From IMG/VR virus record IMGVR_UViG_3300028920_000146, positions 1 through 40,292 of that record: DNA of 40,292 bases; one strand, written 5' to 3'. Each line of letters starts with the position of its first letter. The stretch's first letter is position 1. The notes under the pieces are model-generated. The model was not told the origin of the DNA, made no database searches, and saw nothing but the letters and a program-made list of their open reading frames with translations. The position numbers and the translations under genes were made by a program. This document shows positions 18,952 through 25,989 of the stretch, in pieces. The stretch is from a virus.

Positions 18952-19076
18952 GCAAGATGAAAAGACAACATTGCCCAGAATGTGGAAAAAAGATGATTTT
19001 ACTTTCAGGTAATATTAAGCGGTGGATTTGCGATAGCTGTGGGCTGATGTTTCCAGTAAAGAAAACTGATGGCTAG
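18948..19076 (+). CDS. Tiny zinc-ribbon protein (42 residues)
   Basis: The product is MSKMKRQHCPECGKKMILLS, then RWICDSCGLMFPVKKTDG: two CxxC pairs 16 residues apart, a complete four-Cys zinc ribbon. Start and stop both overlap neighbours (ATGA upstream, 8 nt downstream). Such small ribbons in phages often bind nucleic acid or host polymerase, which is inference here. Confidence 0.65.
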   Translation: MSKMKRQHCPECGKKMILLSGNIKRWICDSCGLMFPVKKTDG

Positions 19077-19629
19077 ACTCATCATCCTCTCAACAGGTAG
19101 ATCGGGGACGACATATATCCACCGCTGCCTATCCCATCTCGGGGTTAAGTTTGGCCATGAGAAGTTAGACTATCAAGGAGGCATCGGCTGGAACTTCGCT
19201 ATCGACTTCAAAAGATCATGCGATATCGTCCTCCATCAAGTCCGAGAGCCGTTTGCCTGCATCTCAAGCCTCACTGCTTTCACTCCATACCATTGGGAAC
19301 GTGTCCGTAAAATCTACGGTAAAGAGATGCCGGAAGACCATCCAGCGAAAGCCGTCTGGTTTTATATCACCTGGAATAACAGATGCGAGAAGCTTGCAGA
19401 CAAGACCTACCGACTAGAGGATATCTACTACGGGAGCGAGAAGGCTAACAGCCTCCTAGATATCCTGGGAGTGAACAAGCCCTGGCCACCAATCTCATCA
19501 GTGGGGACAACAATCAACGCAAGACCTCATGCGGTCTACTCGATAAACGATGTGCCGGGAGAATACCGGAAGGAGCTATTGAAAATGTCTAAACGCTATG
19601 GATATAAGGAGCAAGAAGAAGATGATTGA
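19069..19629 (+). CDS. Sulfotransferase-like P-loop protein
   Basis: A 186-residue protein. Residues 5-18 (IILSTGRSGTTYIH) match the 5'-phosphosulfate-binding loop of PAPS-dependent sulfotransferases ('GR.GTt'), and VREPFACISSL at about residues 59-69 matches the second ('R.P......S') motif. C-terminal motifs are weaker, and the protein is shorter than bacterial sulfotransferases (about 250-300). It could transfer sulfate to a host surface sugar, a phage glycan or a modified base. It begins a run of genes sharing AAGGAGCAAGAAG boundaries and lies 1.4 kb upstream of the radical SAM/glycosyltransferase block. Confidence 0.6.
   Translation: MARLIILSTGRSGTTYIHRCLSHLGVKFGHEKLDYQGGIGWNFAIDFKRSCDIVLHQVREPFACISSLTAFTPYHWERVRKIYGKEMPEDHPAKAVWFYITWNNRCEKLADKTYRLEDIYYGSEKANSLLDILGVNKPWPPISSVGTTINARPHAVYSINDVPGEYRKELLKMSKRYGYKEQEEDD
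19606..19624 (+). repeat. AAGGAGCAAGAAG boundary repeat, copy 1
   Basis: This copy carries 3 extra nt (GAAGAAGATG). It codes for KEQEEDD at the end of the sulfotransferase-like gene and contains the ribosome binding site and ATG of the next gene. Copies 2 and 3 are at 19862 and 20151. Confidence 0.85.
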
Positions 19630-20376: not shown

Positions 20377-20406
20377 CATTGACATGGCATGCCTGTTTTG
20401 TAAACT
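20373..20406 (+). promoter_or_regulatory. Promoter for the ParB / radical SAM block
   Basis: TTGACA occurs twice in tandem (20373-20378 and 20379-20384). Sixteen nt after the second lies TAAACT (20401-20406), a moderate -10 directly preceded by TG. It sits in the 57-nt gap before the ParB-like gene and would give a transcript starting near 20413. Confidence 0.6.
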
Positions 20407-20433: not shown

Positions 20434-21027
20434 ATGAAGATTGAAAAGAGGAGCATCTCAAAGATTAAACCTTACGAGAAAAATCCTCGTAAGAATGACG
20501 GGAAGCCAGTCCAGGCGTTGATAGAATCAATAAAGCGCCATAAGCAGGTAAAGCCCATAGTCATATCTGCTAAAGGCAAGCCGTTCGAAGATGAGGTTAT
20601 CTGTTGCGGGCATACTACCGTTAAGGCTCTTAGGAAAATGGGCAATAAAGAGGTTGCCGTTGTCGTAAGGGAGTTTGAAAGCGAAGCCGATTTCGTTGAC
20701 TACATGATACGCGACAATCGTACTAATGAGTTTGCTGAGTGGGACTACCCTATGTTATCAGATATCGGTGTCTCTCATGGTGTGGACCTTGCCGGGATGG
20801 AGTTTGAGATTGACTACGGTTCTGATGATGAGGAGCTGCCAGACCAAGAAACCGACTCTGTACCTGATGTGGATATGGAGGGTGAGATCGTAAATGAATG
20901 TGATTACGTTATCATCTATTTCGAAGAAGATAATAAAGCAAAAGCTTTCAGGGAAAAGATTGGTATCGGTGAAAATAGTAGATCTATCAATTGGGATGTT
21001 CTAGCCGAAAGCTACGGCATCGAATGA
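20434..21027 (+). CDS. ParB/Srx-domain protein
   Basis: A 197-residue protein with AAGGAG upstream. Residues 1-85 are a ParB-like nuclease domain: ISKIKPYEKNPRKNDGKPVQ, ALIESIKRHKQVKPIVIS, then EVICCGHTTVKALRKMG, where GH(R/T)T...A replaces the usual GERR box. In phages this domain is often joined to or beside DNA-modification enzymes. Residues 105-130 look like the bridging part seen in such proteins (DNRTNEFAEWDYPML), while the C-terminus is acidic. There is no methylase domain. The stop overlaps the radical SAM start (ATGA), so the two are co-translated. Confidence 0.75.
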   Translation: MKIEKRSISKIKPYEKNPRKNDGKPVQALIESIKRHKQVKPIVISAKGKPFEDEVICCGHTTVKALRKMGNKEVAVVVREFESEADFVDYMIRDNRTNEFAEWDYPMLSDIGVSHGVDLAGMEFEIDYGSDDEELPDQETDSVPDVDMEGEIVNECDYVIIYFEEDNKAKAFREKIGIGENSRSINWDVLAESYGIE

Positions 21028-22292
21028 TAAACTTCTACATTCTGCCAAGGGGTTACCTAGTAGGTCCGAAGAAACAGATACCGTTAGGTGTGCTTTACCT
21101 GTGCGCTGCGCTCAAGGAGCGCTATGGTGATAAGGTTGCACTTGTAGACCTCTCTGTAAGTGATATTGAAAGCGTGCTGGACAATGACGCTACTGTCCAC
21201 ATGTTCTCTATAACATCGCTAGAGATAGGGCTTTTAAACAAAGCTGCAAAACTCCTGAAGGGAAAATGCTGCGATAACAGTGTTATCGTTGGTGGCCCAG
21301 GTGTCCTAGCCAAAGAAATGATAGACATGGCTAACATTGATTGTGTTTGTTATGGTCATGCAGATGAAGAGATATGCGACATCGTTGAGGGGGTAATCAA
21401 TGGTGAGCTTGAAAAGCTGCATGTGTGTAATCCAATCTCAGACATCGACAGGTTGCCAATCCCTGCCAGAGATATGGTTGATGGCGCTCTCGGTGGTGGC
21501 ATATTCTCATATGACCACGAATACAAGGATGGTGGCAGTACAAATATAATAAGCTCTAGGGGCTGCCCTTACACTTGTGCTTTCTGTAGCTCCCCATCAT
21601 GGACAAGGAAAGTCATGATGCGAGATCCTAAACTGATCCGTAAGGAGATGGAGCATGTCATAGAAACATATGGTGTCAGGCAGTTTCGCTTCTCCGACGA
21701 CATGTTTACGCTGAGCGACAGCAGAATAAAAGCCGTTTGCGACGAAATATCCGGACTTGACGCTGTTTATAGGATCTCATGTAGGGTTAAGCCAATGACA
21801 GAGTATATGCTACAACGTTTGCGTGAGTCAGGTTGTGTCGAGCTTTCTTTCGGTGTGGAGTCGTTCGATGATAACGTACTCAGCACCCTTAATAAGAAAA
21901 CCACTGCGGAGGATAATGTTAACGCTATACGGCTTGCAAAAGAATATGGGTTCACTGTGCGTGTTCTGTTCATGGTCAATACTCCTGGGCAGACCGAAGA
22001 CACAATCAAAATGAACATGGAGGCTCTCGAAGGCCTGGAATACGATATACTTGCTTGCAGTATATTCGCACCGCTCCCCGGCACTGATGTTTGGGCAAGA
22101 CCTGAGAAGTATGGGATACGGATAGTGAACAGGAACATGGACGACTACAACATATATTCGTTCGATGGGAATGGCCTTCGTGAACACATAAGGCTTTTCG
22201 AGTACATAGACCAGGACACAGATAAAATGGAAGAGGTTTCATATGGGTTCAGACGATGGCTATCAGAGTGCGGAAGAATAAACAAAGGCTAG
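21024..22292 (+). CDS. B12-binding-type radical SAM enzyme
   Basis: A 422-residue enzyme. The start ATG 21024 overlaps the ParB-like stop; an earlier frame start at 20991 is rejected. Residues 1-125 resemble a cobalamin-binding Rossmann domain (LPRGYLVGPKKQIPLGVLYL, VIVGGPGVLA). The radical SAM cluster motif CPYTCAFC is at residues 181-188 after SSRG. The remaining TIM-barrel features include FRFSDDMFTLS and ELSFGVESFDDNVL, and MVNTPGQTEDT. Members often methylate unreactive carbons or make C-C/C-S changes. The substrate is unknown. The C-terminus overlaps the glycosyltransferase gene by 37 nt. Confidence 0.85.
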   Translation: MINFYILPRGYLVGPKKQIPLGVLYLCAALKERYGDKVALVDLSVSDIESVLDNDATVHMFSITSLEIGLLNKAAKLLKGKCCDNSVIVGGPGVLAKEMIDMANIDCVCYGHADEEICDIVEGVINGELEKLHVCNPISDIDRLPIPARDMVDGALGGGIFSYDHEYKDGGSTNIISSRGCPYTCAFCSSPSWTRKVMMRDPKLIRKEMEHVIETYGVRQFRFSDDMFTLSDSRIKAVCDEISGLDAVYRISCRVKPMTEYMLQRLRESGCVELSFGVESFDDNVLSTLNKKTTAEDNVNAIRLAKEYGFTVRVLFMVNTPGQTEDTIKMNMEALEGLEYDILACSIFAPLPGTDVWARPEKYGIRIVNRNMDDYNIYSFDGNGLREHIRLFEYIDQDTDKMEEVSYGFRRWLSECGRINKG

Positions 22293-22999
22293 CCCCTATT
22301 GCTATCCCGACGAGGGGAAGGCACAAGAACGGGTTGACATGGAAACACTTCCATTCAGCGACACTTTTCGTCCTAGAGGAGGAGGAAAGGTTATACCGTG
22401 AAGCAGGAATAAAGAATAAGATAGTAACTCACAATGGCAGATGTACTGCAACAGCGCGCAACGCTATACTTGACCATTATGGAAAGGGTGAGCGTGTAAT
22501 AATCCTTGACGATGACATAAAAGCTTTCGGGAGTTTTATGTATGCAGACGGGAAAAACCGCAACGTCAAGATGCGACCGGAAGAGTTCCATGCGGAGCTT
22601 AACTCATGGTTCGACAAGTCGAAGGGCAGGAAGCTTTTCGGTGTAGCACCTACAGACAACTGCCTCAATTATAACCATAAGAAAAAGGTTGCTGTCGATA
22701 TGTTCCTCCTTGGTGCATGCCACTGTATTGTGGTTTCGGATATACGGTTCGATGTAAACGCTATAGGTAAGTGTGATTATGATTTTACTATATCGCACAT
22801 AGTGAAGGGTGAGGGCACTTTCAGGCTCAACTACATGTATATAGATGTTGACTATGGAAAGATGGATGGAGGAACAAAGATAACAAGACTTGGAGATTGG
22901 AAGAAGACTGGATACTTTTACACACTAGCAAAATGGCCAAACTACCTAACACCAAACCCGAAAAGAAGATACGAGTTTGTATTAAAAAGCCCAAGCTGA
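22256..22999 (+). CDS. GT-A glycosyltransferase, TAGT-like
   Basis: A 247-residue protein with the GT-A pattern: IAIPTRGRHKNGLTWKHF at about 16-33, then TATARNAILDHYGKGERVII and LDDDIKAFGSFMY (DDD near 80-82, the metal/nucleotide-sugar site), then KMRPEEFHAEL. The order 'PTRGR ... ARN.i ... DDDi..f' is that of phage TET-associated glycosyltransferases (TAGT), which in relatives act on modified bases, though no TET/JBP enzyme is seen here. The start ATG 22256 has only a distant GAGG. It overlaps the next gene by 67 nt. An acceptor other than DNA (protein, surface sugar) cannot be excluded. Confidence 0.65.
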   Translation: MAIRVRKNKQRLAPIAIPTRGRHKNGLTWKHFHSATLFVLEEEERLYREAGIKNKIVTHNGRCTATARNAILDHYGKGERVIILDDDIKAFGSFMYADGKNRNVKMRPEEFHAELNSWFDKSKGRKLFGVAPTDNCLNYNHKKKVAVDMFLLGACHCIVVSDIRFDVNAIGKCDYDFTISHIVKGEGTFRLNYMYIDVDYGKMDGGTKITRLGDWKKTGYFYTLAKWPNYLTPNPKRRYEFVLKSPS

Positions 23000-24318
23000 A
23001 GGTGAAGGCCGAGCCAGTCAATAAACCGGCTAGACACTACGCTTCACCTCGTTGGTCTGGTGAACTCCTTGATTGCTCAATGCCGCTTACGTTTGACACT
23101 TACGATAGATGCTCGTACAACTGCCTTTACTGTTTCTCGTATTTCCAAAAATCCCATTCCTTAAAGGGTGGGTGTAACTATGTACATAATGGTAAAGGGT
23201 CTGAAAGCATAAGTCACGTTAACGTTAAAAATGTAAAAAGGCTTTTCAATCTCGATCCAAGTTTACCGAAGAGTTACCGTCAATTCTTTAATTACATTAG
23301 ATCAAGTACAACTTTTCAGTGGGGAGGGCTGGCAGATCAATTTGATAATAACGAGAGGGAGCATGGCATAACTAGGCTTTTGCTGCATGAGTTTAAAAAG
23401 CTGAAGTACCCAATATGCTTTTCTACCAAAGCGACTTGGTGGCTTAGTGATGATAGGTATACCAAAATATTTGAAGGTACTGATAATTGGAACTGCAAAT
23501 TCTCCATAATCAATTTGGATAAGTCAAGGTCTGCTAAGATGGAGCTAGGTTGTCCGTCACCTGAGGCAAGGCTTAAAGCTATTGGGCGCTACTCGAAACT
23601 ATGCAAAGGTGGGGCTACGCTACGTTTGCGGCCATTCATAATTGGCTTTTCTGATAAAGACAACGAGCATCTTGAACTGATAAAATTAGCAAAGGAATAT
23701 GGCGCTACAGCAGTATCCACTGAGTTCTTTTGTCTTGAAGCCAGGGCCAATGCAAACCTTAAAGCTAGATACTACAAGATGAGTGAGATCGTTGGGTTTG
23801 ATATTTTTGAGTTCTACCGTAGGAACAGTAAGGGCTCAGGGTATCGCAGGCTAACAAGGGTGGCAAAGAAGAAGTATATAGATGAGATGGATGCGCTTTG
23901 TTCAAAGCTTGGGTTGCGCTTTTATGTAAGCGATGCGCATTTTAAGGAGCGTTCGTGTAACGGCTCATGTTGTGGGTTGAGCGACGATTGGAACTATTAC
24001 CGTGGACAGTTCACAGAGGCTTTAGTTATCGCAAAGGAAAGGGGTTCAGTCAGGTATTCAGATATATCTGGTAGCGTAAGACACGTGTTCCAGGGTGTTC
24101 CGTTTGTTAATGCTGAGGGCTTTAACACTAATAGTTCTATAGTTCGCGCAATGCGATACAAACAGACTATGGCAGATTATGTCCGTAGCATATGGAATAA
24201 GCCGAACTCTTTGAAGAGTCCGTATAAATATTTCGGTGGAGTATTGAAACCATCAGGCACTGACGATAATAACGATATCATTTATGTGTACGACGACAAA
24301 TGGGATATGAAACGGTAA
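22933..24318 (+). CDS. Second radical SAM enzyme (SPL-like cluster motif)
   Basis: A 461-residue protein from ATG 22933; a TTG at 22897 is a possible longer start. The cluster motif CSYNCLYC is at residues 60-67 within TFDTYDRCSYNCLYCFSYFQ, a context like spore photoproduct lyase and other SplB-type radical SAM proteins. Extra Cys residues near 337-345 (RSCNGSCCGLSDDW) may bind a second cluster. SplB relatives act on thymine in DNA, which makes DNA a plausible substrate. The start overlaps the glycosyltransferase gene and the end overlaps the small terminase gene, so the block runs straight into packaging. Confidence 0.75.
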   Translation: MAKLPNTKPEKKIRVCIKKPKLKVKAEPVNKPARHYASPRWSGELLDCSMPLTFDTYDRCSYNCLYCFSYFQKSHSLKGGCNYVHNGKGSESISHVNVKNVKRLFNLDPSLPKSYRQFFNYIRSSTTFQWGGLADQFDNNEREHGITRLLLHEFKKLKYPICFSTKATWWLSDDRYTKIFEGTDNWNCKFSIINLDKSRSAKMELGCPSPEARLKAIGRYSKLCKGGATLRLRPFIIGFSDKDNEHLELIKLAKEYGATAVSTEFFCLEARANANLKARYYKMSEIVGFDIFEFYRRNSKGSGYRRLTRVAKKKYIDEMDALCSKLGLRFYVSDAHFKERSCNGSCCGLSDDWNYYRGQFTEALVIAKERGSVRYSDISGSVRHVFQGVPFVNAEGFNTNSSIVRAMRYKQTMADYVRSIWNKPNSLKSPYKYFGGVLKPSGTDDNNDIIYVYDDKWDMKR

Positions 24319-24674
24319 AGAAAGAGACGATTATTGAGCTTGCCAGTAAAAAGGCAGGCGTTGTCTCAGCGGTGGCTCAGGCTTGCGGTGTTTCAAGGCA
24401 AGCGATAAACTATCGCAAGCTTAACGATCCCGAGATAGCGCAGGCTTTTGAGGATGCGCGTGAATCCGTCCTCGATATGGCCGAAACTGAGTTATTTAGA
24501 CGTATCAACGGCGGTGATATAACTGCTATTATCTTTACTCTGAAAACGATAGGGAAGCAACGTGGCTATATCGAAAAGACTGAGTTTAAGCATTCAGGCT
24601 CGATGAACCAAGATATAAAGATAATCAAGAAACAAGCCAAGCAGCTTCTGGAAGAAGTTGAATCAGAATTATAG
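24300..24674 (+). CDS. terS: Terminase small subunit-like HTH protein
   Basis: A 124-residue DNA-binding protein. The helix-turn-helix VVSAVAQACGVSRQAINYRK is followed by DPEIAQAFEDARESVLDMAE and a tail with KTIGKQRGYIEKTEF, the pattern of terminase small subunits of the phBC6A51 type ('A...GVS......yR....D..F......a.e...D.ae..l.......'). It recognises phage DNA and activates the large subunit. It lies directly before the large subunit and overlaps it by 17 nt. Confidence 0.8.
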   Translation: MGYETVKKETIIELASKKAGVVSAVAQACGVSRQAINYRKLNDPEIAQAFEDARESVLDMAETELFRRINGGDITAIIFTLKTIGKQRGYIEKTEFKHSGSMNQDIKIIKKQAKQLLEEVESEL

Positions 24675-25989
24675 CTTTTGCCGAAATAGTCTAGGGGCAT
24701 ATATTCTTGAGTTCTTTCCCCAGTTTATTATTTCCTGGCACCATAATGTCATAATCAAGAAGATACGCAAGGTTCTTGATGGTGAGATAAAACGGCTGAT
24801 AATAACAGCACCACCCAGGCATTCCAAGTCGATAATCGTAAGTGAGTTTTTGCCCGCATGGTCGTTGGGACGAAGGCCTGACATGCAAGTGATATGCGCG
24901 TCTTACGGGCAAGACCTATCTGTAAATTTTGGACGAAGAGTAAAGTGGCAGATGACATCACCATCTTTTGAGTCTATCTTTCCTGAATGCGAAGTTATGC
25001 AAGATTCTCAAGCTGCCAATCGTATAAATACATCATCTCGTGGTGTGTATACGGCTACATCTGTTGGTGGTTCAATAACTGGTAAAGGTGCTGATCTTCT
25101 AATAATCGATGACCCTATAAAGGATAGGGCAACAGCGGAAAGTGAAAATTACCGAAATGGCCTTTGGGAATGGTACATTTCGACTGCTAGAACTAGAATG
25201 CAACCTAACGGTGCGATCATAGTAATGGCTACACGTTGGCATGAAGACGATTTATCTGGACGGCTGCTTGGGGATGGCGGTGAAGAATGGGAGCATTTAC
25301 ACCTGAAGGCTATAAGCGATGATGGCGCTGCTTTATGGCCAGAGTGGTTTAATATTGATGATCTTCAAAAAACCAAATCAGTTATCGGTTCCTATGAGTT
25401 TAATTCGTTATACCAGGGTGAGCCTGCTCCAAGGGAAGGCAATATGCTGAAGGTTGAAAATATCCATATCAACAGAAACGGCAACTGGCCAAAAGAATTT
25501 GAGCGGATAATCCAGTCGATTGATTCAGCCTCAAAGACAGGGACTATGAATGACTATTCCGTTATTCAGACATGGGGGTTGAGCTGTGGTAAGTTGTATC
25601 TGATAGATTGCGTCCGCAGACGGCTTGAGTTTTTGGATCTTGTGCAACTCGCACAATCCAAGTACAATCAGTTTAAACCTGAACTTATACTTATCGAAGA
25701 TGCCAGTTCAGGAAGTCAACTAATCCAGGTTTTTAATAGGGAGCTGATACCGTTAAGGGAGATAAGGCCGTCAAAAGATAAGGTTACTCGTGCAATGCCA
25801 TTGGCTGCTGGGATTTCAGCCGGGAAAATTGTTTTCCCTTGCGCTGAATTTGTAGATGATATATTACATGAATGGCGCAACTTTCCAAACGCAAAGCACG
25901 ATGATACCGTTGATGCTGCAACAATGGCTTATGACTATCTTGTCAGGACGAACGAGCCGAGAGTTATGCGCCACCTTTTACTGAGGTAA
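24658..25989 (+). CDS. terL: Terminase large subunit
   Basis: A 443-residue packaging motor. ATPase: Walker A variant ITAPPRHSKS (residues 49-58), Walker B DLLIIDDP (146-153), coupling segment VMATRWHEDDLSGRL (195-209). Nuclease: SIDSASKTGTMNDYSVIQTW, LILIEDASSGSQ and HDDTVDAATMAYDYL. All hallmarks are intact. The likely start is TTG 24658, 17 nt inside the small subunit gene, as no ATG lies close by. It is followed 2 nt after its stop by the portal gene. Confidence 0.95.
   Translation: MNQNYSFCRNSLGAYILEFFPQFIISWHHNVIIKKIRKVLDGEIKRLIITAPPRHSKSIIVSEFLPAWSLGRRPDMQVICASYGQDLSVNFGRRVKWQMTSPSFESIFPECEVMQDSQAANRINTSSRGVYTATSVGGSITGKGADLLIIDDPIKDRATAESENYRNGLWEWYISTARTRMQPNGAIIVMATRWHEDDLSGRLLGDGGEEWEHLHLKAISDDGAALWPEWFNIDDLQKTKSVIGSYEFNSLYQGEPAPREGNMLKVENIHINRNGNWPKEFERIIQSIDSASKTGTMNDYSVIQTWGLSCGKLYLIDCVRRRLEFLDLVQLAQSKYNQFKPELILIEDASSGSQLIQVFNRELIPLREIRPSKDKVTRAMPLAAGISAGKIVFPCAEFVDDILHEWRNFPNAKHDDTVDAATMAYDYLVRTNEPRVMRHLLLR

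What the first reader, a model, noticed from the sequence alone, without database searches (positions are those of the whole stretch)
20434..24318. ParB + B12 radical SAM + TAGT-like glycosyltransferase + SPL-like radical SAM block: candidate DNA hypermodification system
Four overlapping genes lie behind one promoter and run straight into terminase. Each type is known near phage base-modification loci: ParB-like domains beside modifying enzymes, TAGT-type glycosyltransferases acting on oxidised bases, radical SAM enzymes altering bases, SplB relatives acting on thymine. The usual partners (TET/JBP oxidase, C5-methyltransferase, thymidylate-synthase-like enzyme) are missing, so either two radical SAM enzymes functionalise the base first, or the substrate is not DNA. 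This gene combination is not one I recognise as described.
Basis: partly seen in the sequence, partly recalled or inferred. Interest (0 to 1): 0.85.

Follow-up and report, generated by a model that had tools for sequence, protein, structure and literature searches.

The report
Radical-SAM DNA hypermodification cassette in anaerobe phages
This phage carries a cassette that probably chemically armours its own DNA: an oxygen-independent radical enzyme seems to open up the base (most likely thymine) so that a sugar can be attached, and it stands where phages of oxygen-breathing bacteria use a TET/JBP oxygenase or a nucleotide hydroxymethylase.

Summary
The four genes are real, overlap, and run into terminase. 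Profiles confirm ParB, a B12-binding radical SAM, TAGT (PF20691) and an SPL-fold radical SAM (here 'rSAM4'). rSAM4 belongs to a large family that I did not find described: at least 166 stretches in IMG/VR and 11 bacterial genomes, all anaerobes. In 87 non-redundant loci it sits beside ParB (80 loci) and terminase, with interchangeable DNA-decorating enzymes: TAGT (about 48), or amino acid:DNA transferase plus kinases related to 5-hmdU DNA kinase (about 22), and once a TAGT-rSAM4 fusion. The decorator type switches at least 30 times on the rSAM4 tree. Two loci carry phage M6's 5-NedU enzymes, including M6's own, different SPL-like radical SAM. The enzyme that usually makes the hydroxymethyl handle is missing: no TS-like hydroxymethylase and no TET/JBP in 36 virus records. 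Cultured phages with homologous transferases all have TET/JBP (7) or TS (3), and none has rSAM4. Best reading: rSAM4 is a first-step, oxygen-independent functionaliser of thymine in DNA (product probably 5-hmU-like), and TAGT then glycosylates the product. The cassette's role is well supported by context; the rSAM4 chemistry is inferred and no assay was done. The B12 enzyme's role is open.

The parts
20434..21027 (+). ParB-like protein (ParB/Srx fold, 197 aa), part of the conserved core
   Evidence: PF02195, phrog_620 E 5e-26; ParB beside rSAM4 in 80 of 87 loci
21024..22292 (+). B12-binding radical SAM enzyme (422 aa), locus-specific accessory; C-methyltransferase or sugar/base remodelling enzyme (inferred)
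   Evidence: PF04055 + PF02310; nearest subfamily models PhpK, BchE, HpnJ, AprD4, none near its cut-off; PDB 6fd2 AprD4 E 1.7e-15
22256..22999 (+). TAGT glycosyltransferase (247 aa), GT-A fold, RN...DDD...D motifs kept
   Evidence: PF20691; alignment with D86 invariant, D87 and D174 nearly so; AF2 pLDDT 91.3, GT-A matches
22933..24318 (+). rSAM4: SPL-fold radical SAM enzyme (461 aa), universal component; predicted first-step functionaliser of thymine in DNA
   Evidence: CxxxCxxC invariant in 84 sequences; AF2 pLDDT 92.9; SPL Z 19.4, next family 15.9; context
24300..24674 (+). terminase small subunit, overlaps rSAM4
   Evidence: phrog_4044 E 7e-11
24658..25989 (+). terminase large subunit
   Evidence: PF17289/PF03237, phrog_38 E 2e-107
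20379..20406 (+). promoter-like match TTGACA-16-TAAACT before ParB (not evidence of function)

Best explanation
The block is a post-replicative DNA hypermodification cassette. SHOWN by sequence and comparison: a ParB + SPL-fold radical SAM (rSAM4) core joined to terminase and to interchangeable DNA-decorating enzymes. INFERRED: (1) ParB helps bind or select phage DNA. (2) rSAM4 cleaves SAM and its 5'-deoxyadenosyl radical attacks the C5-methyl of thymine in DNA, giving a nucleophilic handle without O2, most likely 5-hydroxymethyluracil or an equivalent. It does the job that TET/JBP or a TS-like dUMP hydroxymethylase does in other phages. (3) In this phage TAGT transfers a sugar to that handle. 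(4) The B12 radical SAM enzyme methylates or remodels the sugar or base. (5) DNA is packaged modified, which would protect it from restriction and similar defences. My probabilities: DNA-modification cassette 0.9; rSAM4 makes the handle 0.6; handle is 5-hmU 0.45; step 4 as stated 0.35.
For: Constant core with swapped decorators: 87 non-redundant loci, ParB in 80, TAGT in 48, ADDT in 22; 43 of 44 scanned TAGTs hit PF20691; ADDT PF18724, 5-hmdU kinase PF18748 and P-loop kinase PF18751 hits. Decorator label changes at least 30 times on the rSAM4 tree, close to random, as expected if one product feeds both. TAGT-rSAM4 fusion, 698 aa, in two metagenomes. L079 and L032 hold M6 gp52 and gp53 homologues (42-52% identity), ADDT and kinase plus rSAM4, with no TS. 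TS 0 of 36 virus records (M6 control rings) and TET/JBP 0 of 36. In 10 cultured phages with ADDT, TET/JBP in 7, TS in the other 3, rSAM4 in none; Fisher p 2e-5, or 1e-4 for records of 36 kb or more, relatedness ignored. Actinophage operon ParB-TET/JBP-ADDT-kinase-terminase has the same layout. C5-methyltransferase in only 2 of 28 records, so 5mC is not the general substrate. SPL is the top fold match. All 11 cellular hosts are anaerobes. SAM synthetase homologue in 11 loci.
Against: No biochemistry and no nucleoside analysis. Virus records may be incomplete, so absence of TS/TET is statistical. Three of 29 records have ThyX hits, two of them weak. About 10 loci have rSAM4 without a recognised decorator; several of these are contig ends. 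Hydroxylation by a radical SAM enzyme needs oxidation of the substrate radical and water capture; I know of no established DNA precedent. rSAM4 is not an SPL by sequence (hhalign probability 25%). The ADDT and kinase profile scores are partly under the curated cut-offs.
Confidence: 0.6

Rival explanations
1. rSAM4 acts late: it rearranges or adds to the installed decoration, like the M6 radical SAM isomerase, and the hydroxymethyl handle comes from an unrecognised phage or host enzyme.
For: M6 gp053, a different SPL-like protein next to terminase, is the probable known isomerase (role from memory of Lee et al. 2022, not readable here). Two loci carry both enzymes.
Against: rSAM4 is constant across chemically unrelated decorators (glycosyl, aminoacyl) that switch freely around it; where the M6-type isomerase is present rSAM4 is still there; no other handle-maker was found.
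Confidence: 0.2
2. rSAM4 is a DNA-repair enzyme (thymine-lesion lyase) kept next to terminase; the modification genes are neighbours by chance.
For: SPL is the top fold match.
Against: Neighbour enrichment, TAGT fusion and free swapping of decorators; the SPL H-donor cysteine position aligns to a conserved glycine in a weak alignment; every locus fetched with it lies beside phage genes.
Confidence: 0.07
3. The substrate is not DNA but RNA, a peptide or a surface polysaccharide.
For: GT-A and B12 radical SAM enzymes are common in polysaccharide and RiPP pathways; the TAGT fold matches are generic.
Against: PF20691 is a DNA glycosyltransferase family (PMC13216743); the alternative decorators are ADDT and 5-hmdU DNA kinase relatives; ParB and terminase adjoin in most loci.
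Confidence: 0.06
4. rSAM4 does activate the base first, but by making a bond other than C-OH (for example C-N, C-C or C-S at the thymine methyl, or chemistry on another base), and TAGT/kinases use another nucleophile.
For: Radical SAM enzymes form many bond types; invariant extra cysteines C15, C234, C313 and C314 could carry another role.
Against: The decorators' known relatives act on hydroxymethyl pyrimidines (Lee et al. 2018, cited in PMC6449724).
Confidence: 0.15

Closest known systems
Actinophage thymidine-hypermodification operon (Gordonia Wooper, Rhodococcus Tonitrus): ParB, TET/JBP, aGPT-PPlase2/ADDT, 5-hmU DNA kinase, terminase
   Same: ParB first, terminase downstream, homologous ADDT and kinase, similar order
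   Different: O2-dependent TET/JBP where anaerobe phages have rSAM4; the window has TAGT instead of ADDT and kinase
Pseudomonas phage M6 5-NedU pathway (TS-like hydroxymethylase, 5-hmdU kinase, ADDT, radical SAM isomerase, PLP decarboxylase)
   Same: SPL-like radical SAM next to terminase; L079 and L032 share gp52/gp53 homologues
   Different: M6 gp053 is a separate family from rSAM4 (2.6 bits); M6 makes 5-hmdU at nucleotide level with a TS-like enzyme, missing here
Spore photoproduct lyase (SPL, PF20903)
   Same: Closest fold, Z 19.4 over 259 residues; CxxxCxxC cluster; SPL acts on thymine in DNA
   Different: 13-14% identity, extra C-terminal third, no SPL family hit, phage location
TAGT family (PF20691; T6 beta-glucosyl-HMC-alpha-glucosyltransferase, phrog_842)
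   Same: Window protein is a scoring member with the acidic motif
   Different: No TET/JBP or TS-like hydroxymethylase partner in the phage

Membership tests
TAGT (PF20691) | Score above curated cut-off | tested here: met
   48.6 bits against 27.5
TAGT (PF20691) | GT-A fold with DxD-type acidic motif | tested here: met
   AF2 model and GT-A matches; D86 invariant, D87 and D174 nearly so
TAGT (PF20691) | Sugar transfer to a modified base in DNA | not testable with these tools
   needs an assay
Radical SAM superfamily (rSAM4) | CxxxCxxC cluster motif | tested here: met
   C27, C31, C34 invariant in 84 sequences
Spore photoproduct lyase | SPL fold | tested here: met
   Z 19.4, rmsd 3.0, 259 aligned, next family Z 15.9
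Spore photoproduct lyase | Membership by sequence profile | tested here: not met
   No Pfam hit up to E 1, so none to PF20903; hhalign probability 25%
M6-type SPL-like radical SAM isomerase (gp053) | Homology to M6 gp053 | tested here: not met
   rSAM4 profile gives 2.6 bits; true gp053 homologues lie beside rSAM4 in L079 and L032
TET/JBP- or TS-initiated hypermodification | TET/JBP or TS-like hydroxymethylase in the phage | tested here: not met
   0 of 36 virus records for each; controls ring; record may be incomplete
DNA hypermodification cassette | Modified bases in virion DNA | not testable with these tools
   needs LC-MS
B12-dependent radical SAM methyltransferase | B12-binding plus radical SAM domains | tested here: met
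   PF04055 over cut-off; PF02310 30.4 bits, just under its cut-off of 32.1
B12-dependent radical SAM methyltransferase | Match to a characterised subfamily above cut-off | tested here: not met
   best 99 bits against 600 for PhpK

The most novel reading that the evidence does not exclude
rSAM4 is a third, oxygen-independent way to put a hydroxymethyl-type handle on pyrimidines in DNA: an SPL-derived radical SAM enzyme that functionalises thymine in the polymer, used by phages of anaerobic bacteria as the common first step for sugar and amino-acid DNA armour.
Probability: 0.5. Interest if true: 0.92.

Novelty: new variant of a known kind. Interest (0 to 1): 0.84.

Why it matters
All phage routes to hydroxymethyl-pyrimidine DNA known to me start with a TS-like enzyme on nucleotides or with an O2-dependent TET/JBP enzyme on DNA. 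Anaerobes cannot use the second. A radical SAM enzyme doing this on DNA would be new enzymology, would explain how phages of anaerobes build complex DNA modifications, and would give a usable enzyme for marking thymine without oxygen. It also assigns a testable job to a family with at least 166 viral stretches that Pfam did not annotate in the one member tested.

Tried and rejected
tblastn of the TAGT and rSAM4 of the window against 50,697 annotated phages: nothing; a relative's rSAM4 gave one 24% hit, MT835521. Single-protein IMG/VR scans with TAGT and the B12 enzyme found nothing, so neither could be traced by its own close relatives. M6 gp053 considered as rSAM4's orthologue and rejected. 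ADDT in 299 genomes of the phylum of Selenomonas: none over cut-off, useful only as background. The TET/JBP search over the rSAM4 records had a silent control at first; repaired by the actinophages, where it rings in 7 of 7. The SPL H-donor cysteine was given little weight, since several SPL homologues fetched also lack it. Streptomyces phage SF3 B12 enzyme: unrelated neighbourhood. Iyer 2013 and Lee 2022 are not in the paper library, so whether they mention this family could not be checked. Ten paper searches found no description of the combination.

Full report
WHAT IS THERE. The window is a 40,292-base IMG/VR virus record. The four genes exist as described and overlap: ParB 20434-21027, B12-binding radical SAM 21024-22292, TAGT 22256-22999, radical SAM 'rSAM4' 22933-24318, then terminase small and large subunits. 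Head genes follow and a tape-measure gene ends the record. The 'one promoter' is a single consensus match and not significant.

THE FAMILY. rSAM4 has 16 IMG/VR relatives from a single-sequence scan. With a family alignment there are 166 matching stretches (80 loci kept) and 11 GTDB genomes. All 11 genomes belong to lineages known as anaerobic: Selenomonas ruminantium, Selenomonadaceae, Clostridia, Clostridiaceae, Lachnospiraceae, Oscillospiraceae, Prevotellaceae, and one MAG named only as Firmicutes. The CxxxCxxC motif and further cysteines (C15, C234, C313, C314 in alignment numbering) are invariant in 84 sequences. The AlphaFold2 model (pLDDT 92.9) matches spore photoproduct lyase best (Z 19.4, rmsd 3.0, 259 residues), well above the next family at Z 15.9. 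By sequence it is not an SPL.

THE CASSETTE. After removal of near-copies, 87 loci remain. Within about 7 kb on the same strand: ParB in 80, TAGT in 48, ADDT in 22, two P-loop kinase groups in 16 and 12, HAD-like 16, cytidylyltransferase 15, GNAT 12, a second SPL-like radical SAM in 12, SPASM radical SAM in 7, SAM synthetase-like in 11. These counts come from my own profiles at E 1e-4. Pfam confirms PF20691 in 43 of 44 TAGTs, ADDT PF18724 in 18, and 5-hmdU DNA kinase PF18748 in 8 and Ploopntkinase3 PF18751 in 8 of 51 scanned. One protein, seen in two metagenomes, is a TAGT-rSAM4 fusion of 698 aa.

WHY rSAM4 IS PROBABLY THE FIRST STEP. First, decorators are swapped: on the rSAM4 tree the decorator label needs at least 30 changes (11 to 18 forced by starred branches for the two main labels), close to shuffled labels. 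One enzyme with two unrelated kinds of follow-up chemistry suggests one common product. Second, the L079 and L032 loci carry homologues of M6 gp052 (47-52% identity) and gp053 (42-43%), ADDT and kinase, which is the M6 pathway downstream of 5-hmdU, plus rSAM4, but no TS-like gene in either record (the L032 record is only 26 kb). The M6 gp053 family is separate from rSAM4. Third, exclusion: TS-like 0 of 36 virus records, TET/JBP 0 of 36. In 10 cultured phages with ADDT, TET/JBP is found in seven and TS in the other three, with rSAM4 in none. In Gordonia and Rhodococcus phages the operon reads ParB, TET/JBP, ADDT, 5-hmU kinase, then terminase (PMC11955845). rSAM4 thus stands in place of the TET/JBP gene, though not at the same position in the gene order. 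Fisher tests give 2e-5 (8 against 10 records) or 1e-4 (6 against 10, records of 36 kb or more) but ignore relatedness. C5-cytosine methyltransferase is in 2 of 28 records, so thymine is likelier than 5-methylcytosine as the general substrate. ThyX hits in 3 of 29 records are a caveat.

MECHANISM PROPOSED. Shown: the parts, their conservation, the predicted fold. Inferred: ParB contacts DNA; the 5'-deoxyadenosyl radical attacks the thymine methyl in DNA; the product is an OH-bearing handle (5-hmU most likely); TAGT adds a sugar; the B12 enzyme, found in this locus only, methylates or remodels sugar or base. SPL is known to handle a thymine-methylene radical (established knowledge), which makes the first step chemically reasonable. 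The oxidation and water capture needed for hydroxylation have no precedent on DNA that I know of.

COMPARISON AND NOVELTY. It works like the TET/JBP-initiated actinophage operon and like the later part of the M6 pathway, but it fails the defining test of both (no TET/JBP, no TS). PMC13216743 reports 288 of 753 phage genomes with solitary TAGTs of unresolved function; this kind of cassette may explain some of them. PMC12783734 reports ParB beside another cytosine-modifying system. No paper found describes this family, but two key papers (Iyer 2013, Lee 2022) were not readable, so priority is unchecked.

VERDICT. Context makes a DNA-hypermodification cassette very likely (0.9). That rSAM4 makes the handle without oxygen is the best single reading (0.6) and is directly testable.

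Noticed in passing
window 19069-19629: ORF with a sulfotransferase-like PAPS-loop motif (GRSGTTYIH), weak Sulfotransfer_3 hit E 0.046, about 0.8 kb upstream of ParB; could decorate the same modification or be unrelated.
   Followed up: partly
L041 8254-10350 and L036 6135-8231: Natural fusion of a TAGT and rSAM4 in one 698-aa protein.
   Followed up: yes
L079 4003-7753 and L032 10298-13954: M6-type gp052/gp053 homologues with ADDT and kinase next to rSAM4; predicted 5-NedU-like pathway without a TS-like enzyme.
   Followed up: yes
L059 4812-5654 and other loci: A second, about 280-aa SPL-like radical SAM family (CNYPTRLDTYGCGC...CYAKSLL) near the cassette, role unknown.
   Followed up: partly
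L056 1737-2585 and ten other loci: Phage S-adenosylmethionine synthetase homologue, mostly just downstream of rSAM4, perhaps feeding SAM to the radical enzymes.
   Followed up: partly
L015, L021, L063 and others: TAGT loci with a cytidylyltransferase-like gene and a HAD-like gene, suggesting the transferred group comes from a dedicated CDP-activated donor.
   Followed up: no
L080 10775-11965: Protein with a weak radical SAM hit beside rSAM4, a possible parallel to the B12 enzyme of the window.
   Followed up: no
L067 (record G021): ThyX homologue (E 1.6e-41) in an rSAM4 record that has no recognised decorator.
   Followed up: no
L018 7335-8834 (Streptomyces phage SF3): B12-binding radical SAM gene of a cultured phage followed by thymidylate kinase and MutT/NUDIX genes; possibly another nucleotide-modifying cassette.
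   Followed up: no
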